The notes beneath the pieces are model-generated. The model was not told the origin of the DNA and did not search any database. It saw only the letters and a program-made list of their open reading frames with translations. This document shows positions 1-10,312 of a stretch of 64,000 nt of DNA, one piece after another (the first letter of the stretch is position 1; each line of letters starts with the position of its first letter). Made by a program: the position numbers and the translations under genes. This stretch comes from Microtetraspora niveoalba (GTDB taxonomy: Bacteria; Actinomycetota; Actinomycetes; Streptosporangiales; Streptosporangiaceae): assembly GCF_001570405.1 (NCBI RefSeq), contig NZ_BBYM01000012.1, positions 1-64,000 on the forward strand. Direction: 5' to 3'.

Positions 1-365
1 GGTCCGTGGGCCGCGGCGGGGCCGGGCGAGGGCGGCGCCTCCGGGTGTCCCGGCTCCCGCGTCGCCGCCTCTCGTTCCGCGGGCTCCGGCGCCCCGGCTC
101 CCCGCCGGCCCGCAGACGCGCCGGGCGCGCCCGTCTCGCCGGTGACGGCGGGGAAGGGCTGCGTGGACCTGTCCTCGTTCTCCGGCAGCGGCGGCCACAC
201 GCGAAGGTCGGTGAGGTCCCTGCGGAGCTGTCCCGGGATCGGGATCTGCGGGGCCTGCGGCGCGGCTGGACGGGAACGCTGCCGGGGCGGGGGCGAGAAC
301 CAGTCCCGCGCCTTGGTCCGCTCGCGCTGGCGGCGGCGCCGCCCCTCCATCGGGGTCTCACTCAT
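1..365 (-). CDS. Proline-rich protein, C-terminus beyond the window edge
   Basis: An open frame starts with ATG at 365 and runs without a stop off the left edge (121 codons visible). The start is preceded by AGGTGGAGAG, an acceptable ribosome binding site. The visible part is hydrophilic: Arg-rich residues 8-18 (GRRRQRERTKARDW), then a Pro/Ala/Glu-rich low-complexity stretch with no membrane segment. It looks like a disordered cytosolic N-terminal region. It lies 119 nt downstream of the DUF4352-like gene at 485-1156 on the same strand, so it may belong to the same unit. I do not recognise the family, and function cannot be assigned from this fragment. Confidence 0.6.
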   Translation of the reverse strand, partial: MSETPMEGRRRRQRERTKARDWFSPPPRQRSRPAAPQAPQIPIPGQLRRDLTDLRVWPPLPENEDRSTQPFPAVTGETGAPGASAGRRGAGAPEPAEREAATREPGHPEAPPSPGPAAAHG

Positions 366-484
366 CTCTCCACCTCGGCTGACGGGGCGGCCGGCCGCGG
401 GGTCGCCGGGGCGTGCCTGGGGCGGGACACCGGGCGTCTCGCGGGCCGGGCCCTGCCCGTGGGTTCGATCGTCTCGGCCGCGCA

Positions 485-1156
485 TCAGCTCGTGCCCACC
501 AGGGAGTGCAGCTTCTCCGCGCCGGCGACCAGGCGGGCGGCCGCGGCGTCCGTCAGGCCGAGGTCGATCTCCGCTTCGGGAACGAAGGTGTCGACGACGA
601 GGGCGCCCTGCGGTGGGACGACGACGAGCCGCAGGCCGGGCAAGACGTCCTCCGGGATCTCGAAGACCAGTACGCCCTTCGACCAGAGTCCCGGCTGCAA
701 CATCTTGTTGAACAGGGTGAGGCTGTCGGAGACCTTGTCCGTGGGCTTGTAGCGCCGGCCGTCCGCGGTCAGGAGGACGGGCGGCTGCAACCGGCTGAGC
801 TGCAACGGACGTTTGGGCGTGGTGGCCGTGACGTCGATCACGAGGAAGAGGTTGCTCGTCGCCACCTCGACGGTCTGTCCGGCGGTGTCCTGGGTGTTCA
901 CGGCGTGCGCGGCGGTCACCGACGTGACCTTCGCGCTGAACCTGTTCGTCTCCACCAGCTCGCCCGCCGCACCCTTGACCGTGAGGGCCGACCCGCGCTG
1001 CTCGTACGGCATGGTGAAGGTCTGGGCGTAGACGGCGGCGGCCGCGAGCGCGAGGCCGGCCACGATCCCCACGACGCGCATGACCACGCCGGGCCGCGGC
1101 TGGCTCGGGCCGGTCGCGGTCGCCTCGGGGGCGCCGGTCCCGGAGGTCGCGACCAT
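485..1156 (-). CDS. Membrane-anchored extracellular protein, DUF4352-like beta fold
   Basis: The 223-residue product has a short cytosolic N-terminus, one membrane segment at about residues 25-43 (VVGIVAGLALAAAAVYA) and an extracellular C-terminal domain. That domain has the layout of Ig-like DUF4352 proteins: beta-rich, with a late LQPG...GVLVFEIP motif. The ATG overlaps the stop of the upstream gene by one base (TGATG), and AGGAGGAGG lies just upstream, so the two genes are translationally coupled. An in-frame GTG directly before the ATG is an alternative start. The fold assignment is inferred from pattern. The role is unknown; the paired gene upstream encodes a similar topology. Confidence 0.75.
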   Translation of the reverse strand: MVATSGTGAPEATATGPSQPRPGVVMRVVGIVAGLALAAAAVYAQTFTMPYEQRGSALTVKGAAGELVETNRFSAKVTSVTAAHAVNTQDTAGQTVEVATSNLFLVIDVTATTPKRPLQLSRLQPPVLLTADGRRYKPTDKVSDSLTLFNKMLQPGLWSKGVLVFEIPEDVLPGLRLVVVPPQGALVVDTFVPEAEIDLGLTDAAAARLVAGAEKLHSLVGTS

Positions 1157-1815
1157 CACGCCTCCTCCTGGCGTACGGGGAGGGTGATCCGCGTGGCCAC
1201 CACGGGGACCGCGGGGTCGCTGTCCTCCTTCATCTCCAGTTGCCAGGCGTTGCCCTGGTCGCGCATCCCGATCTCCTGGTAGACGAAACGCCCCACGTCG
1301 AGGGTCACCGAGTCGGGGGCGACGGCGCCGGGGTCGAGCTCGTACTGCACGACGACCGTGGTGGTGATCCCGGGATGGAGCTGCTGGCTCTTCACGCCGT
1401 AGCTGAGGACGTGGACGCGGGGGGAGGGCTCCTGCCCGACCTTGGGCTCGATGGCGAGGAGCGAGCCCGCGAGGCCCGAGAACACGGACCACGGCCGGCC
1501 GGGTTCGTGCGCCACGCCGACACTGGCGGTCTCGTCGCCCATGTTGGTGACCTTGAGGACGAGGTTCAGATAGCGCTTCGTCCGGCCGAACTCGTTCCGC
1601 TCGACGGTGTCGACGGCCTTGATGAACTGGGTGTGGAACGCGCCCTGGTCGACGGTCTCTCCCGGCCGCGCGGTCGGCGGGGGCTCCTCCGGAGCCTCTT
1701 TCAGGCCGCCGAAGATCGCGGTGACGCCGATTCCCGCCGCGATCACCGCGAGGGCGACCGGGACGAGCACGGGGCGTCGTCGGCGGCGGCGTGCGTCACG
1801 GGGGGAGGACGTCAT
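1156..1815 (-). CDS. Membrane-anchored extracellular protein, DUF4352-like, paired with next gene
   Basis: This 219-residue protein begins with a basic cytosolic stretch (RRRRRRP, residues 10-16) and one membrane segment at about 18-36. An extracellular domain follows, with the pattern of DUF4352-type Ig-like folds (YLNLVLKVTNMGDETASVG; LHPGITTTVVVQYEL). I chose the ATG at 1815 because the basic residues follow directly; a longer ORF extends to 1875. There is no clear Shine-Dalgarno, but TAGCAT lies 8 nt before the ATG, which fits a leaderless transcript. The gene is divergent from the membrane pseudo-ATPase gene at 1963. Function is unknown. Confidence 0.75.
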   Translation of the reverse strand: MTSSPRDARRRRRRPVLVPVALAVIAAGIGVTAIFGGLKEAPEEPPPTARPGETVDQGAFHTQFIKAVDTVERNEFGRTKRYLNLVLKVTNMGDETASVGVAHEPGRPWSVFSGLAGSLLAIEPKVGQEPSPRVHVLSYGVKSQQLHPGITTTVVVQYELDPGAVAPDSVTLDVGRFVYQEIGMRDQGNAWQLEMKEDSDPAVPVVATRITLPVRQEEA

Positions 1816-1962
1816 GGCAATGGATGCTAGTACGACCACACTTGCACCATTAGCCGCATTGATCCTTGCGGCCAAGGCCGCAAATGTGTCCGAATGGCGA
1901 GAACGCCACCCTGATCGGCTTTCCAGCTCCTACGCTGTGATCCAGGCGGACATGGAGGGTCT

Positions 1963-4068
1963 GTGGGCGACCTGCACCCCGAGCATGGCCGGCTTCAGGC
2001 GGATCGGATCTACCTGGGCTGGCAGTACGCCCTGCTGCACCCTGACCCGGGGCCGCCGCCCAAACGCCCGGCGCGCGAAGACCTCACAAAGTCCGAAGCC
2101 GAGCTCGAACCCGGGTCCGCCGCAGGACACGGAGCCGAACCGGGCCCGGAGTGGGCCGTCCGGCAGCGGCTCCAGCAGGACCTGCTCAACCGCCCCGTCC
2201 GGATCTTCCGGATGCTCATGGCCGCGCTGGCCGCCGTCATCCTCGTCCTCGGGCTCGCCGGTCCGGTGACCTTGTCCTTCGTCCTCGTCGGCCTGGTCGC
2301 GACCGGCGGCGTCGCCGGCATCTGCACGTACGCGATCCGGCAGGGGGACCGGGCCGTCCGGCTCCGCGCCGAGGAGCGCCTGGAGCGGGCGCGGCGTGAG
2401 CGGGCCCGCCGCGAGCGCGAGATCGCCGCCGCGCAGGAGGAGCACGCCGCGCGATACCGCGAGTGGGCCGAGCGGAAGAACGCCTTCGACCGGCAGCTCA
2501 CCTGGTACGGCGTCGCCGTGCCGGACGACATCGACCGTGTGGACGTGGCCGGGGGGACGCTCCCCGGCTGGTCGGCCCTGGTCACCCTGATCGGCGCCAC
2601 CCGCCTGTACAGCGGCGGCCACCTGACCGTGCTCGACCTGTCCGAGGGCGCGATCGCCAAGGACCTCGTCGAGCTGGCCAGACGGGGAGGCGACGACCCG
2701 CTGGTGTGGGTGCTTCCCGTCGACCTGCCCCGGCTCGACCTGGGGGCGACGCTCCCGCCCGAGGCGTTCGCCGACGTGCTCGCCCACGTGGTCAGCGTCA
2801 GCGAGGAGACCGGCAGGGACGTCGGGTTCGACAACGCGATCCTGGAGCGGGTGCTGGAGGTCCTCGGCGAGAACGCGACGATCAACCAGGTCACCGCCGC
2901 GCTGCGGGCCCTCGCCCAGGTGGGCGACCCGCGCGACGACCTGAAGTGCGGCCTGCTCACCGCAACCCAGCTCGAACGCATCGGCACCCTGTTCGGCCGG
3001 GGCGTCGCCGACCGCGTCGTGATCGAGCGCGCCTGGGCGCTGGAGTCCCAGTTGCGCAAGCTGGAGACCCTCGGCTCCGAGGCCGTACGGCTCCCGCCCG
3101 CCCGCCTGCGTGTGGTCAGCATGGACCGGCAGGCCGGGGTGTTCGGCAACCGCGTCCTCGGCACGTACGTCGCGACCGCGCTGACGCACATCCTGCGCCA
3201 GTCGCCCGCGTCGGAGCGTCCCTGGTACCACACGATCATCGTGGCGGGGGCGGACAAGCTGCGCGGCGACGTGCTCGACCGGCTGATGGACGCCTGCGAG
3301 ACCTCGCGGACCGGGCTCGTCCTGACCTATCGCAGCCTCACCCCCACCGTGCGGGAGCGCCTCGGCCGGGGCCACGCCGCCGTCGCGTTCATGCGGCTCG
3401 GGAACGCCGAGGACGCCCGGGTCGCCAGCGAGCACGTCGGCACCGAGCACCGGCTGGAGCTGGCCCAGCTCACCGAGACGTTCAGCTCCGCCGTCAGCGG
3501 CACCGGCGGCCACTACACCTCGACCGTGGGCGCGGGCCGTACCGGCCCGGAGGCGAAGGGCGAGGGGGACCTCAAGGAGGACATCGCCGAGTCCACCCAG
3601 TGGGGGCGCAGCGCGACGACCGCGACCACGAACATGGCCGAAGGCGTGCTGCAGCGGTCACGCGAGTTCCTGGTCGAGCCGCACCAGCTCCAGCAGCTCC
3701 CGACGACCTCGGTCATCGTCACGCACGCCACCGCGGAGGGGCGGCAGGTCCGCCTCGCCGACGCCAACCCCGCGATCCTCGCGTTCCCGAAGACGACGCT
3801 GGGGGACTTCGAGGAGGTGCGGCGCGCCGCTCTCGCCGCCCCCGAGCAGGCCGAGCAAGCCGAGGGGGCCGGACATGCCGGACAGGTGGGCCAGGTGAGT
3901 CAGGCCGGGCAGGGGCAAACGGGACAACCAGGACAGGCAGGGCCTCCAGGGCCGGTCGGAAAGTCCGGGCACGCCCCCGCGGACGAGCCGCGGCCCGAGC
4001 CCGACGACGGCCCCCCGCCGAACCTCGGGCCGCCGCCGCCACGTCTCGACTGGCGAAAGACACGGTAA
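1963..4068 (+). CDS. Membrane protein with degenerate HerA/TraG-like ATPase domain
   Basis: This 701-residue protein starts with GTG, placed by GGAGGG 3-4 nt upstream. Two membrane segments (about 84-101 and 103-125) are followed by a highly charged coiled coil (128-178) and a soluble domain. The second half reads like the end of a HerA/VirD4-type P-loop ATPase: WYHTIIVAGADKL (421-433) sits where Walker B would be, followed by the FMRLGNAEDA...EHVG pattern seen in TraG/TraD C-termini. No GxxxxGK[ST] motif is present, and the Walker B acidic pair is replaced (GAD), so I infer a pseudo-ATPase. The tail (about 625-701) is Gln/Gly/Pro-rich. It lies 77 nt upstream of the intact HerA-like ATPase, so the two probably work together at the membrane. 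Confidence 0.8.
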   Translation: MGDLHPEHGRLQADRIYLGWQYALLHPDPGPPPKRPAREDLTKSEAELEPGSAAGHGAEPGPEWAVRQRLQQDLLNRPVRIFRMLMAALAAVILVLGLAGPVTLSFVLVGLVATGGVAGICTYAIRQGDRAVRLRAEERLERARRERARREREIAAAQEEHAARYREWAERKNAFDRQLTWYGVAVPDDIDRVDVAGGTLPGWSALVTLIGATRLYSGGHLTVLDLSEGAIAKDLVELARRGGDDPLVWVLPVDLPRLDLGATLPPEAFADVLAHVVSVSEETGRDVGFDNAILERVLEVLGENATINQVTAALRALAQVGDPRDDLKCGLLTATQLERIGTLFGRGVADRVVIERAWALESQLRKLETLGSEAVRLPPARLRVVSMDRQAGVFGNRVLGTYVATALTHILRQSPASERPWYHTIIVAGADKLRGDVLDRLMDACETSRTGLVLTYRSLTPTVRERLGRGHAAVAFMRLGNAEDARVASEHVGTEHRLELAQLTETFSSAVSGTGGHYTSTVGAGRTGPEAKGEGDLKEDIAESTQWGRSATTATTNMAEGVLQRSREFLVEPHQLQQLPTTSVIVTHATAEGRQVRLADANPAILAFPKTTLGDFEEVRRAALAAPEQAEQAEGAGHAGQVGQVSQAGQGQTGQPGQAGPPGPVGKSGHAPADEPRPEPDDGPPPNLGPPPPRLDWRKTR

Positions 4069-4145
4069 GGGCATCGTCAATATGACCGTGTGAACGTTAC
4101 CGGCGAAAGAGTCTCTCCCCTGTCAACCGTCAACCGAGGGGTCTC

Positions 4146-7100
4146 ATGCATCCGTTCCCCCTGAGCGGGCCCTGGTACCGGATCCAGGCCATCGCCGCGC
4201 CCTCACGGAGCTCGTCGGCGGAGTGGGACTTCGTCACGGTCCTCCCGGCCGTGCTGTCCGCCGCGCAGCGCAACCGGCCGTTCGTGATCGGCTGGTTGTC
4301 CCGGGGGGCGGGTGCGCCGCTCGAACTGATCACCAACGCCGGCCCGCTCACGCCGCCGCGCCCGCCGAAACGCGCCGTCACGTCGATCGACGTCACGCCC
4401 ACCGGGCCGCAGCCGCTGCTGTTCCCCGGCGGGGCCCGGGGCGTCGAGATCGGGGACGAGTGGCTCGACGACCTCGCCGACCTGGTCTGGACGCCCTGCC
4501 CCGGCCGCCAGGCGCCCCCGCTCAACGGCCGGAGGGAACCGGAGCCGGACGAGCCCAAGCAACCGACGCTGTTCGAGTCCACGCTGGTGACGCTGATGTC
4601 CCGGCCGTTCGGCTGGGTGGTGGTCGCCGAGCCCACCGACCTGCTCGACGCCGAGGTCGCCCACCTGCGCACCCAGCTCAACGTGCTGCGCCAGTACGGC
4701 GACGCCTCGGAACGGTCGCGGTTCGACGCGGAGCGGGCCGAGCGCAGGATGCAGGAGCTCGACGCCTTCCGCGAGGCCGGGTTGTGGAACGTCCGGGTCC
4801 TCGCCGGTGCCGCCGGACCGGACGAGCTGCGACAGATCGCCCCCGTCCTGGTCGGCTCCGTCGAGATGAGCCACCACCCGTACCGGCTGCGCAGCGCCAT
4901 GTCCGGGCCGCTGCTGTCCGAGCCGGTCCGTTCAGGCCCGCCCCACGGCTCATCGCCCGAGTCCGGGTACGGCTTCGCCGAGGCGCTCCACGTCTCTCTG
5001 CAGGACCCGGCGGACGGGGCCGCCGCGCCGTTCGCGGCCACGGCGGGCGCGCTGGCGGCGCTGGCCGGGCTGCCCCGCCGCGAGGTCCCCGGCGTACGCG
5101 TGCTCGACGCCGGGTTCTTCGACGTGACCAGCGAGGCGGACACCGCGAGCGGCGAGACGATCGACCTCGGCGCGATCGTGGACGGGCAGGACCGGGCGGT
5201 CGGCACCTTCCGGGTGCCCCTCGCCACGCTCAACCGGCACGCCTTCATCACCGGGGCCACCGGGTCCGGCAAGTCGCAGACCGTGCGCCACCTGCTGGAG
5301 GAGCTCACCAAGGCCGGCATCCCGTGGCTCGCCATCGAGCCGGCCAAGTCCGAGTACGCGGCCATGGCCGGCCGGGTCGAGCACCTGGCCCCGCTCACGG
5401 TGATCAACCCCTCGGCCCCGGACAACGTGCCGTTCAGCGTGAACCCGCTCGCGCCCGAGCCCGGCTATCCCGTGCAGGCGCACATCGACATGGTGCGCGC
5501 CCTTTTCATGGCGGCGTTCGACGCCGAGGAGCCGTTCCCGCAGATCATGTCCCTGGCCCTGCAGCGGGTCTACGAGGCCAACGGCTGGGACGTGGTCACC
5601 GGGGGAGGCATTCCGGGCGCCGCCGTCCAGCCCGCCGTGCCGACCCTGGAGCAGCTCCAGCAGCACGCCCTGGAGGTGATCCAGGAGATCGGGTACGGCA
5701 ACGAGGTCCAGGCCGACGTCGAGGGGTTCATCAGCCTCCGGCTGCGGAGTCTGCGGGTCGGCAGCGCCGGGCGGTTCTTCGAGGGCGGCCATCCGGCGGA
5801 CATCGGGGGCCTGCTCCAGCGGAACGTCGTGCTCGCGATCGAGGACGTGGCCAACGACGAGGACAAGGCGTTCCTCATGGGCACGCTGATCATCCGCATA
5901 GTGGAGCACCTGCGGATGCGGGCCCGCCAGGAGTTGTCCCACGAGGAGGGCGGCGGCGCGCTCAGGCACGTCATCGTGATCGAGGAGGCGCACCGGCTGC
6001 TGCGCGACCGCGGCTCCCAGCGCGCCTCCACGCACGCCGTCGAGCTGCTCGCCGGAATGCTCGCCGAGATCCGCGCGTACGGCGAGGGCATCGTCGTGGC
6101 CGAGCAGATCCCGACCAAGCTGGTCTCCGACGTGGTCAAGAACACGGCGCTGAAGGTCGTGCACCGGCTGCCCGCCGAGGACGACCGGCGGCTCGTCGGC
6201 GCCGCGATGAACCTCAGCGAGGACCAGTCGCGCCAGGTGGTCTCGCTCCAGCCCGGGTACGCGGCGGTGTTCGCCGACGGCATGGACCGCCCGCTGCGCG
6301 TCCAGGTCCCCCTGGGCGAGGGCCGCGAACGCGCCATGCTCGGCCCCATCCCGCCCATCTGCGGCCGCCGTTCCGCCGCCTGCGGGCGCGAGTGCCGTAC
6401 GGGGAAGGCGTGCACGCTCTTCGAGCTCCGCGAGGCGGACCTGCTCGCCGCCGCCCCCGAGTGGGCGTGGCTGCGCATCTGGACCGACACGGTCGTGCTG
6501 GCGTTCGTGACGAACCGGCCGCTGCCCGGCGTGCCGCGCATCCTCGCCGACATCTGGGCCGAGCTGCCGCCCAAGCGCCGCGAGTGCCTCCTCGCCACGC
6601 TGGTGGAACGTTGCGTCGCCCGCCGCGCCTGGTCCCTGCGCACCTGGTTCGACCCGGCGCTTCTCACGGAGAAGGCGGCGGAGGTGGCCGCCGCGCTGCT
6701 CGACACGGCCGCCGCGGCGTCGCAGGGCGCCCAGGAGCCGGTCTCCGCCTGCCCGGCGGCGCGTTCCGTACGGGCCGGAGCCGAGCCGGTCGCCTCCTCT
6801 GTGGCGGCCGCCTCGGCCGGCGGAGGGCCGGTGGCCGCCCAGTCGGCGGCGGCCGGGACGTCCGGCCAGGAGGCGCCCGCCGGAGCCTGTCTCGCGCCCT
6901 CACGGGAGCGCGAAGACGAGCCCGGCGAGCCTGGCGAGCCCGCGGACCCCGGTGACGGTGACGGGGCGGGGACGGCCGGGGGAGAGGACGACGGGTCCCG
7001 GCGGCCGGAGCCGGTGGTTCCCGCGCGGCCTCCGGGGCGGGCCGCCCCCTCCCAGGCGGGCGAACGACCGGGAGCCGCCTGGGTGATCCCCCAGGTGCGC

Positions 7101-7652
7101 TGGCTGCACGAGGTCGAGCGGCTGTTCCCCTTCGGGCACCCCGCGCCCAACCTGCGCAGCCCCGCCCCCGTCATGGAGTACGCGCTGTTCGGCACCGACC
7201 CCTCCGGCCGGCCGTACCCGCACCAGGGGGTCAACGGCGCGTACGGCGGGCGCGACGGCGACGAGAACGGAGCCGACGGCGCCGTGACGGGCGGCCCGGT
7301 GACGGCCGGGTCCCCGCCCCGCGGCGCCGCCGGCGCGCGGACGGAACTGCTCGGCCATCGGGCGAAGGCGCTGCGGCACCATCCGCTGTCCATGGAGGTG
7401 GACCGCAACCGCGCGCTCGCCTGGCGGGTCATCCTGGGCGACGACGAGCACGAGGGCATCCAGCGGGACATCACGACGGTCGCCATCGGCGTGGAGCCGC
7501 GCGAACGCCTCCGGTACGTCGCCCAGACCATGGGGGCGGGCTGGCTGGAGACGGTGTCGTCGTGGCCGCGCCGGTTCGTCCTCCCGTTCGACGGCGACAC
7601 CCCGGCCGAGCTCTCCTTCACCGACCAGCGGGACGACCACCCGGGTTCCTGA
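4146..7652 (+). CDS. HerA/VirB4-like P-loop ATPase (DUF87 type) with Cys cluster
   Basis: The 1168-residue protein starts with ATG after GAGGGG. An N-terminal domain (about 1-330) precedes a HerA-FtsK ATPase core. Walker A is GATGSGKS (370-377) and Walker B is VIVIEE (609-614) followed by AHRLL. A sensor-like segment, AEQIPTKLVSDVVKNT, follows, as in DUF87/HerA helicase-like proteins. Four cysteines after the core (C739, C746, C750, C756) may bind zinc. Residues about 845-985 are low-complexity, and a conserved-looking C-terminal domain ends at 1168. HerA-type ATPases pump DNA or protein and usually form hexamers. The preceding gene encodes a membrane protein resembling a dead relative. The exact role is unknown; defence, conjugation-like transfer and secretion are all possible. 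Confidence 0.85.
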   Translation: MHPFPLSGPWYRIQAIAAPSRSSSAEWDFVTVLPAVLSAAQRNRPFVIGWLSRGAGAPLELITNAGPLTPPRPPKRAVTSIDVTPTGPQPLLFPGGARGVEIGDEWLDDLADLVWTPCPGRQAPPLNGRREPEPDEPKQPTLFESTLVTLMSRPFGWVVVAEPTDLLDAEVAHLRTQLNVLRQYGDASERSRFDAERAERRMQELDAFREAGLWNVRVLAGAAGPDELRQIAPVLVGSVEMSHHPYRLRSAMSGPLLSEPVRSGPPHGSSPESGYGFAEALHVSLQDPADGAAAPFAATAGALAALAGLPRREVPGVRVLDAGFFDVTSEADTASGETIDLGAIVDGQDRAVGTFRVPLATLNRHAFITGATGSGKSQTVRHLLEELTKAGIPWLAIEPAKSEYAAMAGRVEHLAPLTVINPSAPDNVPFSVNPLAPEPGYPVQAHIDMVRALFMAAFDAEEPFPQIMSLALQRVYEANGWDVVTGGGIPGAAVQPAVPTLEQLQQHALEVIQEIGYGNEVQADVEGFISLRLRSLRVGSAGRFFEGGHPADIGGLLQRNVVLAIEDVANDEDKAFLMGTLIIRIVEHLRMRARQELSHEEGGGALRHVIVIEEAHRLLRDRGSQRASTHAVELLAGMLAEIRAYGEGIVVAEQIPTKLVSDVVKNTALKVVHRLPAEDDRRLVGAAMNLSEDQSRQVVSLQPGYAAVFADGMDRPLRVQVPLGEGRERAMLGPIPPICGRRSAACGRECRTGKACTLFELREADLLAAAPEWAWLRIWTDTVVLAFVTNRPLPGVPRILADIWAELPPKRRECLLATLVERCVARRAWSLRTWFDPALLTEKAAEVAAALLDTAAAASQGAQEPVSACPAARSVRAGAEPVASSVAAASAGGGPVAAQSAAAGTSGQEAPAGACLAPSREREDEPGEPGEPADPGDGDGAGTAGGEDDGSRRPEPVVPARPPGRAAPSQAGERPGAAWVIPQVRWLHEVERLFPFGHPAPNLRSPAPVMEYALFGTDPSGRPYPHQGVNGAYGGRDGDENGADGAVTGGPVTAGSPPRGAAGARTELLGHRAKALRHHPLSMEVDRNRALAWRVILGDDEHEGIQRDITTVAIGVEPRERLRYVAQTMGAGWLETVSSWPRRFVLPFDGDTPAELSFTDQRDDHPGS

Positions 7653-7708
7653 CCCGCCACGGCCGGGCGCACCGGTCGGTCGTCCCCATCCTGTGCGGGA
7701 GGGGCGTG

Positions 7709-8125
7709 TCACCGGTCTCTCTTGCGTTCGATCCGCTTGCGGCGGGCCACCTCCCGCCGCTGCTCGTCGGCGGCCCGCCTGAGGGCCTTGCGATCCGCCG
7801 CCGCCTCACGCTTGCGGCTCTCCAGCTCCAGCCGCATCGCCTCCTGCGAGGCGGTGCTCCGCATCGCCTTGACCGCGCGGCTCGCGAGCTTGGCCGCCCG
7901 CTTGGGGTTGGGCCGCCGGGCCTCCCGCGTCTCCGCGCTCACCGGCGGGGCGGCCTCGGCCCGCTCCAGCAGGGCCACGCCGTGGCGCATGAGGAACTCG
8001 TACAGCTCGGGATCGGTGGGCTCGGAGCCGAACACGAAACGGACCGCCCGAAGCTCCCCGTTCTCCTGGATCTCAAGTACGCCGACCCAGAACGGGGAAT
8101 CGAAGAAGACGGAAAGGGTGACCAT
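7709..8125 (-). CDS. yjdF: YjdF family protein (DUF2992)
   Basis: The 138-residue protein begins MVTLSVFFDSPFWVGVLE, the hallmark of the YjdF/DUF2992 family, and continues with the conserved VRFVFGSEPTDPELYEFL segment. The C-terminal half (about 70-138) is a long, highly charged Arg/Lys/Glu helix, as usual in this family. GGAGAG lies 6 nt upstream of the ATG. In Bacillus the homologue is controlled by an azaaromatic-sensing riboswitch; I saw no obvious equivalent in the 216-nt divergent gap before murT. The biochemical function of the family is not established. Confidence 0.85.
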   Translation of the reverse strand: MVTLSVFFDSPFWVGVLEIQENGELRAVRFVFGSEPTDPELYEFLMRHGVALLERAEAAPPVSAETREARRPNPKRAAKLASRAVKAMRSTASQEAMRLELESRKREAAADRKALRRAADEQRREVARRKRIERKRDR

Positions 8126-8341
8126 CGCTGCTCTCCAGTGCGTATGCCGAAGGACGGCCTGACGAGGCCGCTCACCGGCACACCGGACATCCCTGGAGAG
8201 GGCGGTTACGAGTGAGTCGCCCGGGCTACCGACCGGGCCGCGTTTTCGTGTGCGTCCCCGACCCTAGGCCAAGGCGGCGACCTGGACGAATCCGAATAGG
8301 ATCGAGCAGCGCATTATGGTGAGCGGCATGAGGAGGAGCGC

Positions 8342-9571
8342 ATGAGTCAGCTTCCGTTGCGGGCGCAGCTCGCCAGTGCTCTGGGGCGTACGGCCGCGAC
8401 TCTGTCCCGGGCCACCGGGCGCGGCGACGGCTCCGTGATCGGCGGCAGGGTCGGTCTGATGCTGGAGCCGGACCTGCTCCGCCAGCTCGCGGCGGACCGC
8501 AGGCTCGCGCTGGTGAGCGCCACCAACGGCAAGACCACGACCACGCGGCTGATCGCCTCCGCGCTGCGGCAGCTCGGCGAGGTGGCCACCAACGCCTTCG
8601 GCGCCAACATGCCCGCCGGCCACGTCTCGGCGCTCTCCAGCGCCAAGGACGCGCCGTACGCCGTGCTGGAGGTCGACGAGAAGTACCTCCCCGAGGTGCT
8701 CGACACGACGCGGGCCGGGGTGGTCTGCCTCATGAACCTCAGCCGCGACCAGATGGACCGCGCGGCGGAGATCTGGCTGCTCGCCCAGAAGTGGCGCCGC
8801 GCCCTCGCCGCGCAGCAGACGCTGGTGATCGCGAACTGCGACGACCCGCTGGTCGCCTGGGCGGCGTCCGGCTCGTCCAGGGTGAGCTGGGTGGCCGCGG
8901 GCCAGCGTTGGCGCGAGGACTCCTGGTGCTGCCCGGAGTGCGGCGGCCCGCTCGATCGCAAGGGCGCCGACTGGGCCTGCCGGGAGTGCGCGTTCCGCCG
9001 CCCCACGCCGTCCTGGGTCCTCGACGGCGAGGACGTGATCGACCCGCGCGGCCAGCGGTGGCGGCTGGACCTGCGGCTTCCCGGTCAGGCCAACCGGGCG
9101 AACGCGGCGATCGCGCTCGCGACCGTGGCGGCGTTCGGGCTCGAACCCGGCCACGCGCTCCTGGGGCTGCGCGAGGTGACCTCGGTCGCCGGGCGCTACA
9201 CCACGGTCGAGCGTGACGGCCGGTCGCTGCGGCTGCTGCTCGCCAAGAACCCCGCCGGCTGGCTGGAGGCGTTCGACGTCGCCGACCCGTCGCTCCCGAT
9301 CATCCTGTCGGTCAACGCGCAGGGCCCCGACGGCCGCGACACGTCCTGGCTCTGGGACGTGGACTACCGCATCCTGCGGGGGCGTCCGGTGCTGGTGACC
9401 GGGGAGCGCCGCCGCGATCTCGCCCTCCGCCTGTACGTCGCGGGCGTGCCGTTCCAGCTCTGCGACTCGTTCGGGCAGGCGGTCGCCGTGCTGCCGCCCG
9501 GCCGGATCGACGTGATCGCCAACTACACCGCCTTCCAGCAGATCCGAACGGAGTTCGGCCGTGCGGAGTGA
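8342..9571 (+). CDS. murT: Lipid II isoglutaminyl synthase, MurT subunit
   Basis: MurT is a Mur-ligase-like enzyme that, with GatD, amidates the D-Glu of lipid II to D-isoglutamine on the cytosolic face of the membrane. The 409-residue product has the ATP-binding loop ATNGKTTTT (60-68), the characteristic inserted zinc ribbon (C197, C200, C213, C216) and the C-terminal DUF1727 region with SWLWDVDY (335-342), where a conserved Asp is needed for catalysis. GAGGAGGAG precedes the ATG. gatD starts 33 nt downstream, the usual two-gene operon. A TAGGAT hexamer about 45 nt upstream could be the -10. Confidence 0.95.
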   Translation: MSQLPLRAQLASALGRTAATLSRATGRGDGSVIGGRVGLMLEPDLLRQLAADRRLALVSATNGKTTTTRLIASALRQLGEVATNAFGANMPAGHVSALSSAKDAPYAVLEVDEKYLPEVLDTTRAGVVCLMNLSRDQMDRAAEIWLLAQKWRRALAAQQTLVIANCDDPLVAWAASGSSRVSWVAAGQRWREDSWCCPECGGPLDRKGADWACRECAFRRPTPSWVLDGEDVIDPRGQRWRLDLRLPGQANRANAAIALATVAAFGLEPGHALLGLREVTSVAGRYTTVERDGRSLRLLLAKNPAGWLEAFDVADPSLPIILSVNAQGPDGRDTSWLWDVDYRILRGRPVLVTGERRRDLALRLYVAGVPFQLCDSFGQAVAVLPPGRIDVIANYTAFQQIRTEFGRAE

Positions 9572-9604
9572 CCACGGCCGCCGCCTGACGAGTGGAGTCC
9601 CGGC

Positions 9605-10312
9605 ATGACCTCTCACATTCGCCTTGTCTGGATCTATCCGGACCTGCTCAGCACGTACGGCGACCAGGGCAACGTGCTGGTCCTGGAGCAGCGGGCCCGC
9701 GCGCGCGGCCTGTCGGTCGAGACGGTCCACGTACGGTCATCCGACCCGGTGCCCGAGCAGGGGGACATCTACCTGATCGGCGGCGGCGAGGACCGGCCGC
9801 AGATCCTGGGCGCCGAGCGGCTGCGCAAGGACGGCGGCCTGCACCGCGCGGTCGCGCGCGGGGCGGCGCTCCTGGCCGTCTGCGCGGGCTACCAGATCAT
9901 GGGCTCGGTCTTCGGCGGAGAGGAGGGCCAGCCCGTGTCGGGCATCGGCCTGCTCGACATCAGTTCGGCCCGGGGGGAGCGTCGCGCGGTCGGCGAGCTG
10001 GCCGCGGAGGTGGATCCGGCGCTGGGCGTGCCCACGCTGACCGGCTTCGAGAACCACATGGGCGTCACCCGCCTGGGCCCCGGTGTACGGCCGCTGTCGC
10101 GGACGATCATCGGCACCGGCAACGGCGACGGCACGGAGGGCTGCTACGCGGGCAAGGTGATCGGCACGTACCTGCACGGCCCCGCCCTGGCCCGCAACCC
10201 GGCGCTCGCCGACCTGCTGCTCGCCTGGACGGTCGGGCCGCTCGCCCCGATCGACGACACCTGGTACCAGCGCCTGCGCGAGGAGCGCCTCGCCGCCGTG
10301 ATCCCCGGCTGA
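9605..10312 (+). CDS. gatD: Lipid II glutaminyl synthase, glutamine amidotransferase subunit GatD
   Basis: GatD releases ammonia from glutamine for MurT. This 235-residue class I (CobB/CobQ-like) amidotransferase has the nucleophile Cys93 in AVCAGYQIMG and the catalytic His191 in GTYLHGP, close to C94/H189 of the Staphylococcus enzyme. As in other GatD proteins there is no third Glu of the classic triad. It is co-transcribed with murT 33 nt upstream. A small palindrome at 10323-10337 (CGGCCC-GTC-GGGCCG) may end the transcript before the convergent dsrE-like gene. Confidence 0.95.
   Translation: MTSHIRLVWIYPDLLSTYGDQGNVLVLEQRARARGLSVETVHVRSSDPVPEQGDIYLIGGGEDRPQILGAERLRKDGGLHRAVARGAALLAVCAGYQIMGSVFGGEEGQPVSGIGLLDISSARGERRAVGELAAEVDPALGVPTLTGFENHMGVTRLGPGVRPLSRTIIGTGNGDGTEGCYAGKVIGTYLHGPALARNPALADLLLAWTVGPLAPIDDTWYQRLREERLAAVIPG

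What the first reader, a model, noticed from the sequence alone, without database searches (positions are those of the whole stretch)
1..7652. HerA-like ATPase paired with a membrane pseudo-ATPase and divergent exported proteins
Seen: an intact HerA/DUF87 ATPase (Walker A 370-377, Walker B 609-614) follows, 77 nt downstream, a two-helix membrane protein whose C-terminal half resembles the same ATPase class but lacks Walker A and has GAD in place of the Walker B acids. Divergently lie two coupled membrane-anchored DUF4352-like proteins and a Pro-rich protein. Inference: the dead ATPase anchors or caps the active one at the membrane, and the exported proteins form the outer part of a DNA- or protein-moving machine, possibly for defence. 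I know no named system with this composition.
Basis: partly seen in the sequence, partly recalled or inferred. Interest (0 to 1): 0.72.

Follow-up and report, generated by a model that had tools for sequence, protein, structure and literature searches.

The report
Dead coupling protein paired with HerA
A membrane protein that looks like a burnt-out pump subunit sits beside a working pump ATPase in most sampled members of one actinobacterial family, and in other actinomycetes the same pair is followed by toxin genes, which suggests an undescribed machine for handling or delivering toxins.

Summary
The anatomy is real: a 701-aa membrane protein lies 77 nt upstream of an intact 1168-aa HerA-type ATPase, divergent to DUF4352/Ig-like membrane proteins. 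'Dead ATPase' holds up: the Walker A Lys position is Trp in 72 of 74 relatives (Arg in 2), and both Walker B acids are lost in 72. But it does not match HerA. Profiles place it, moderately, with VirD4/TraG coupling proteins (score 39.3; best of 40 decoys 23.4). AlphaFold failed for both proteins.

HerA follows it in 57 of 58 loci of the window's family, usually beside murT; it is as conserved as MurT, so here it is a fixed chromosomal locus, not a defence island. Pairing is not obligatory: three near-complete relatives keep only the dead protein.

New: in six of seven pair loci read outside the window's order, a polymorphic-toxin-like gene follows HerA: disordered leader plus ADP-ribosyltransferase (2), RelA/SpoT-like, lipase-like, RHS or calpain-like part, each followed by a small immunity-like gene. 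I read the pair as an effector-handling, probably exporting, motor. The window copy has no adjacent toxin; its cargo is unknown. Nine paper searches showed no description.

The parts
1963..4068 (+). Dead (pseudo-) ATPase: N-terminal membrane segment(s) and long helix, C-terminal VirD4/TraG-like region, 701 aa
2551..2574 (+). Degenerate Walker A, GGTLPGWS (residues 197-204); Trp where the P-loop Lys would be
   Evidence: Trp in 71 of 71 aligned; with three later loci placed by motif, 72 of 74, Arg in 2
3232..3255 (+). Degenerate Walker B, TIIVAGAD (residues 424-431)
   Evidence: Gly429 in 71 of 71; two later loci read GEQ/GEH, i.e. keep one acid
4015..4056 (+). Conserved C-terminal tail PPNLGPPPPRLDWR after a variable linker (residues 685-698)
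   Evidence: not seen in the toxin-linked relatives
4146..7652 (+). HerA/DUF87-type ATPase, 1168 aa
5253..5276 (+). Intact Walker A GATGSGKS (residues 370-377)
5970..5987 (+). Intact Walker B VIVIEE (residues 609-614)
6381..6413 (+). Cys cluster C746, C750, C756 after the ATPase core; metal site inferred only
   Evidence: Invariant in 9 of 9; missing in the Nocardia relative
1156..1815 (-). Bitopic exported Ig-like protein (memB); start inferred from relatives; Ig-like is my reading, no Pfam match
485..1156 (-). Bitopic DUF4352 protein, coupled to memB by a 1-nt overlap
3..365 (-). Pro-rich bitopic protein, 5' part only (cut by the contig end); start inferred from relatives
8342..10312 (+). 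murT (8342-9571) and gatD (9605-10312), conserved neighbours; names are my recall, not from a family scan

Best explanation
The pair is a two-part membrane motor. The 701-aa protein is a catalytically dead, coupling-protein-like platform (membrane segment, long helix, VirD4/TraG-like domain that has lost ATP binding). The HerA-type ATPase docks on it from the cytoplasm and provides the force. The window family's copy is a fixed chromosomal form without an adjacent toxin; its fast-evolving exported proteins would form the outside part. Shown: gene order, conservation, loss of catalytic residues, adjacent toxin-like genes. Inferred: contact between the two proteins, cargo recruitment, direction of movement, the role of the small genes, and that the window copy moves protein at all.
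For: Pairing in independent contexts: 57 of 58 loci of the window's family; an unnamed distant genome with HerA first (G054); 19 of 19 plasmid-collection records with a substantial match to the dead protein have HerA beside it, four organisms in all, 16 records being one species; three of three f20 genomes read. Dead site. VirD4/TraG link: 39.3 against a decoy maximum of 23.4, and 36.0 over 368 columns against 23.5. Toxin genes after HerA: ADP-ribosyltransferase 2e-24 and 3.5e-28, calpain-like protease 7e-11, RHS repeats 4e-87, RelA_SpoT 4e-4, lipase-like 1e-4 (the last two below curated cut-off). Spacing after the HerA stop: 4-nt overlap in 4 of 6, gaps of 24 and 283 nt in two. A small gene follows the toxin in 6 of 6, overlapping it by 1 or 4 nt in five; the two that follow ADP-ribosyltransferases are related (30% over 127 aa, single-pair E 1e-12); one locus also has an HD_4 hydrolase, one an ankyrin protein.
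Against: No toxin-like gene was recognised between HerA and murT in the window's family: the distance is 317 nt or less in 49 of 56, and the seven longer gaps hold DUF2992, a DinB_2 gene or no clear gene; so function is carried over from relatives 26-45% identical. G054, the seventh outside locus, has the pair but no toxin. Three relatives 99% complete keep the dead protein without HerA, and Embleya NBC_00888 has HerA alone. No channel was identified. No fold was obtained (the models covered residues 1-631 and 1-874). Without the bridging 619/639-aa family the VirD4 comparison is weak (28.7, E 0.014; no decoys run for it). The two toxin-linked copies with Arg and one Walker B acid may be less dead.
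Confidence: 0.53

Rival explanations
1. The mobile versions are abortive-infection or anti-phage systems: HerA senses or grips foreign DNA and releases the adjacent toxin inside the cell; the small following genes are antitoxins.
For: HerA ATPases occur in known defence systems, and PADLOC gives weak mad8/HerA matches; patchy distribution, 3 of 61 genomes of family f20; a RelA/SpoT-like part with an HD_4 protein looks like a toxin-antitoxin pair.
Against: RHS repeats and long leaders are, from recall, typical of exported toxins; dead partners carry membrane segments; in the window's family the dead protein is in 13 of 13 genomes and the pair is very conserved.
Confidence: 0.21
2. It is a DNA-moving machine, related to conjugation, that moves chromosomal or plasmid DNA between hyphae.
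For: HerA and VirD4/TraG proteins are DNA pumps; NCBIfam CedD and HerA are the closest models; in G033 the dead protein lies beside conjugation-like genes.
Against: No relaxase or pilin was noticed in the translated or annotated loci (no dedicated search); toxin genes are coupled to HerA.
Confidence: 0.12
3. In the window's family the locus is a housekeeping envelope system working with lipid II amidation, and the toxin link belongs only to distant relatives.
For: murT is found at the locus in 56 of 58, with a HerA-murT gap of 85 nt or less in 28 of 56; the dead protein stays beside murT where HerA is absent; median best-segment identity of HerA 88%, MurT 83%.
Against: Exported partners diverge fast (medians 44-56%) and are doubled in five Sphaerisporangium loci, unlike a typical housekeeping complex.
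Confidence: 0.14

Closest known systems
VirD4/TraG type IV coupling proteins
   Same: N-terminal membrane segments; C-terminal profile similarity, including the tail after the last RecA strand
   Different: No Pfam T4SS-DNA_transf or TraG match; Walker A Lys and Walker B acids lost; partner is a HerA-type ATPase
HerA helicases (HerA-NurA; anti-phage HerA; CedD)
   Same: DUF87/HerA_C core with intact Walker motifs
   Different: NCBIfam HerA and CedD models score 16-65 bits against cut-offs of 600-970; own N-terminal region and Cys cluster; no NurA, SIR2 or DUF4297 product name among annotated neighbours of the plasmid pairs; not searched in the window
Type VII secretion ATPase EccC/EssC/YueA
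   Same: Membrane pump combining dead and live ATPase domains for toxin export (Zhang 2012, PMC3482391: a footnote read describes mobile versions with three HerA/FtsK domains, only the middle one active)
   Different: Two separate proteins; FtsK_SpoIIIE match below cut-off; WXG100 substrates were not searched for
Polymorphic toxin systems
   Same: In relatives: leader, RHS repeats, variable C-terminal toxin, small following gene
   Different: The Zhang 2012 passages read name only the type VII FtsK/HerA pump; the window locus has no recognised toxin

Membership tests
VirD4/TraG coupling proteins | Match to Pfam family models (T4SS-DNA_transf, TraG-D_C) | tested here: not met
VirD4/TraG coupling proteins | Two N-terminal membrane helices | tested here: inconclusive
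   One strong segment in the window protein, two in some relatives
VirD4/TraG coupling proteins | Active Walker A and B | tested here: not met
VirD4/TraG coupling proteins | RecA-like fold | tested here: inconclusive
   Profile score above 40 decoys; AlphaFold pLDDT 46.5
HerA/FtsK superfamily (1168-aa protein) | DUF87/HerA_C core with Walker A and B | tested here: met
HerA-NurA, anti-phage HerA or CedD equivalogs | Curated NCBIfam cut-off | tested here: not met
Known HerA defence systems (PADLOC) | Strong match of HerA and of a partner gene | tested here: not met
   Core-region matches only, best 66 bits; no match for the three neighbours scanned
Type VII secretion | FtsK_SpoIIIE domain | tested here: not met
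   16.3 bits, cut-off 24
Type VII secretion | WXG100 substrate | not tested
   No search was made
Polymorphic toxin system (relatives) | Variable toxin parts and a small following gene beside one conserved machine | tested here: met
   6 of 7 pair loci read outside the window's order; the seventh, G054, not
Polymorphic toxin system (window locus) | Toxin and immunity genes at the locus | tested here: not met
   Only DUF2992 between HerA and murT

The most novel reading that the evidence does not exclude
A previously undescribed protein-translocation system of actinobacteria: a VirD4-like platform that has permanently lost ATPase activity plus a separate HerA motor exports polymorphic toxins with disordered leaders, and the Streptosporangiaceae have made it a core envelope machine with its own exported outer parts.
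Probability: 0.28. Interest if true: 0.9.

Novelty: new variant of a known kind. Interest (0 to 1): 0.69.

Why it matters
If true, toxin delivery would have another engine besides the known secretion systems, built from split live and dead ATPases as in type VII, and a family of actinomycetes would carry it as a conserved chromosomal gene set of unknown role beside cell-wall genes. The toxin-linked copy on S. clavuligerus plasmid pSCL4 makes it directly testable in a laboratory strain.

Tried and rejected
Direct homology of HerA and the dead protein: profile-profile null; HMM scores about the level of shuffled and reversed decoys in most regions, one marginal 5.7 against a decoy maximum of 2.2. 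PDB profile hits of the dead protein (ABC exporter at 7e-4 and 1e-3, covering the membrane/helical part; MuB-like at 0.11) were set aside. Phage origin: two unannotated records match, over about 31-35% of HerA. NCBIfam 'serine-rich' NF033849 as a natural fusion of the two proteins: looked at, not established; the script stopped with an error, so its last search did not run. Polymorphism of the toxin within E. coli: only 1 of 5426 genomes carries that HerA. Literature: 9 accepted searches in an open-licence library; passages read in PMC3482391, PMC7159879 and PMC12857230; all other papers seen as listings only. Rows dropped: a weak hit (G043, E 7e-4) was read as chance after viewing its locus; a match covering 12% of the query in Streptomyces sp. 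NBC_01717 was not followed. An error of mine, found on checking: I had concluded that G112 lacks HerA; searches show a full HerA there, followed by a leader-bearing protease gene. I raised confidence slightly (0.50 to 0.53, novel case 0.27 to 0.28) for that reason.
Full report
What is there. The window is the first 64 kb of contig 12 of an 8.47 Mb genome; its best named matches are Microtetraspora (84-90% best-segment identity for the 701-aa protein). The Pro-rich gene is cut by the contig end; a relative shows a 310-aa bitopic protein and, beyond it, a 432-aa polytopic membrane protein facing it. Neither has a Pfam or NCBIfam match.

Conservation. A scan with the 701-aa protein found 58 loci; by title 57 belong to genera I recall as Streptosporangiaceae, and one is an unplaced actinobacterial MAG (L056) (the query biases the sample towards that gene). 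HerA is present in 57 of 58, murT and gatD in 56, the exported cassette genes in 54-55. The locus without HerA is a 6-kb contig that ends inside the 701-aa gene (L019). L022 has HerA but no murT in the 6.5 kb held after it. Median best-segment identity to the window: HerA 88%, GatD 85%, MurT 83%, dead ATPase 79%, exported proteins 44-56% (HerA segments often cover about 850 of 1168 residues). HerA to murT distance is 9-820 nt, and 85 nt or less in 28 of 56. Seven gaps exceed 317 nt: two hold DUF2992, three a 184-aa gene (DinB_2 in the one scanned), two no clear gene. Two exported genes (polytopic and DUF4352) are doubled in five Sphaerisporangium loci, memB in four of them. This is a vertically kept locus with a fast-changing outside part.

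Limits of the pairing. In 21 whole genomes the dead ATPase is in 14: 13 of 13 of the window's family, 1 of 1 of a second family in the order, 0 of 7 others. Of the 14, 10 have HerA beside it, one has a divergent HerA on another contig (G005) and three, each 99% complete, have no HerA match (G009-G011), although the dead ATPase still lies beside murT. In 50 genomes across the class the dead ATPase is in 5 (one weak hit set aside) and HerA (E up to 1e-30) in 3, all 3 with the dead ATPase; G033 and G053 have the dead ATPase only. In 61 genomes of family f20 (unnamed; I take it for Streptomycetaceae from genome size only) the dead ATPase is in 3, and all 3 loci also hold HerA. Embleya NBC_00888 has a full HerA with no match to the dead ATPase in its locus or whole record. 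So in these samples HerA of this kind seldom occurs without the dead protein, while the dead protein does occur without HerA.

What the dead protein is. Across 71 aligned sequences the P-loop Lys position is Trp in 71 and the Walker B stretch ends G-A/G/C-D/E in all. Three later sequences, placed by motif, give Trp once (with GAD) and Arg twice (with GEQ and GEH, so one acid is kept there). Direct comparison with HerA is null. Comparison with seven VirD4/TraG proteins plus two 619/639-aa proteins found upstream of the dead ATPase in G013 and G005 gives score 39.3, pairwise E 5.5e-4, against a maximum of 23.4 in 40 column-permuted decoys; the two alone give 36.0 over 368 columns (decoy maximum 23.5), with GGTLPGWS on their P-loop stretch. 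One of the two matches a TraD model at 5e-9, far below its curated cut-off. Without them the score is 28.7. The HerA family itself matches the same VirD4/TraG set at 5e-9. The assignment is moderate, not proven, and these E-values are for single comparisons.

Toxin link. Outside the window's order I read seven loci with both genes. On plasmids of S. clavuligerus (pSCL4), S. antimycoticus and Nocardia sp. the order is dead ATPase, HerA, toxin-like gene, the last starting 4 nt inside the HerA stop. In G081 both junctions overlap by 4 nt. In G124 HerA converges on the dead ATPase and its toxin gene follows after 24 nt. In G112 HerA is divergent from the dead ATPase and its toxin-like gene follows after 283 nt. 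The seventh, G054 (Frankia-like; my recollection from its size), has the pair with no such gene. The six third genes have long disordered Pro/acid-rich leaders (my reading of the sequences) and different C-terminal parts: ADP-ribosyltransferase (2e-24; 3.5e-28), calpain-like protease (7e-11), RHS repeats (4e-87), RelA/SpoT (4e-4) and a lipase-like part with a GHSLG motif (NCBIfam SA1320, 1e-4); the last two are below curated cut-offs. Each is followed by a small gene: 134 aa (pSCL4), 94 aa then an HD_4 protein (S. antimycoticus), an ankyrin protein (Nocardia), 147 aa (G081), 134 aa (G124) and 87 aa (G112). The pSCL4 and G124 134-aa proteins, both after ADP-ribosyltransferases, are related (30% over 127 aa); the 147-aa, 87-aa and 94-aa genes have no known match (the 87-aa one was not scanned).

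Wider HerA relatives. Of twelve more distant loci or fragments opened, two have a recognised toxin after HerA: LHH nuclease then a SUKH immunity gene on an E. coli plasmid, WHH nuclease on a Lactococcus plasmid. The others are followed by hypothetical genes, or none of the kind; two of these genes were scanned with Pfam without a match, the rest judged by product name or translation only.

Reading. A membrane-anchored dead coupling-like protein, a live HerA motor and variable toxins beside them are most simply an effector-handling motor, probably exporting. The window's family keeps the motor and its exported partners but no adjacent toxin, so its cargo is unknown. A defence reading of the mobile versions and an envelope-housekeeping reading of the window copy remain open. 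Not tested: protein contact, fold, cargo, direction.

Noticed in passing
L098 1350-9749 and L104 921-9704: HerA relatives on an E. coli and a Lactococcus plasmid sit in similar operons: two dynamin genes, small gene(s), HerA, a polymorphic-toxin nuclease (LHH or WHH), then a small gene (SUKH immunity in E. coli).
   Followed up: partly
L099 6518-8059: A Streptomyces plasmid gene annotated 'zeta toxin family' has a Zeta-toxin N-terminal part running in frame into the C-terminal part of this HerA family, followed by a leader-like gene.
   Followed up: no
L074 11128-12987 (-) and L070 7407-9326 (+): A second membrane VirD4/TraD-like protein with a degenerate P-loop (619/639 aa) lies just upstream of the dead ATPase, in place of the exported cassette.
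   Followed up: partly
window 4015-4056: The C-terminal tail PPNLGPPPxRLDWR is conserved even at 35-38% overall identity, like a docking peptide; it is not seen in the toxin-linked relatives or in L069.
   Followed up: partly
window 7709-8125: A DUF2992 gene lies on the opposite strand between HerA and murT in the window and in 2 of 58 loci (L003, L060); three Microbispora loci have a DinB-like gene at that place.
   Followed up: partly
L089 about 4305-8960 (+): In G033 the dead ATPase, without a HerA match in the genome, lies beside conjugation-like genes (a VirB4-like ATPase and a protein recalled as SCO6880-like; names recalled).
   Followed up: no
L126 8561-8962 and L094 15301-15705: The small genes after the two ADP-ribosyltransferase effectors are related to each other and to nothing in Pfam: candidate cognate immunity family.
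   Followed up: partly
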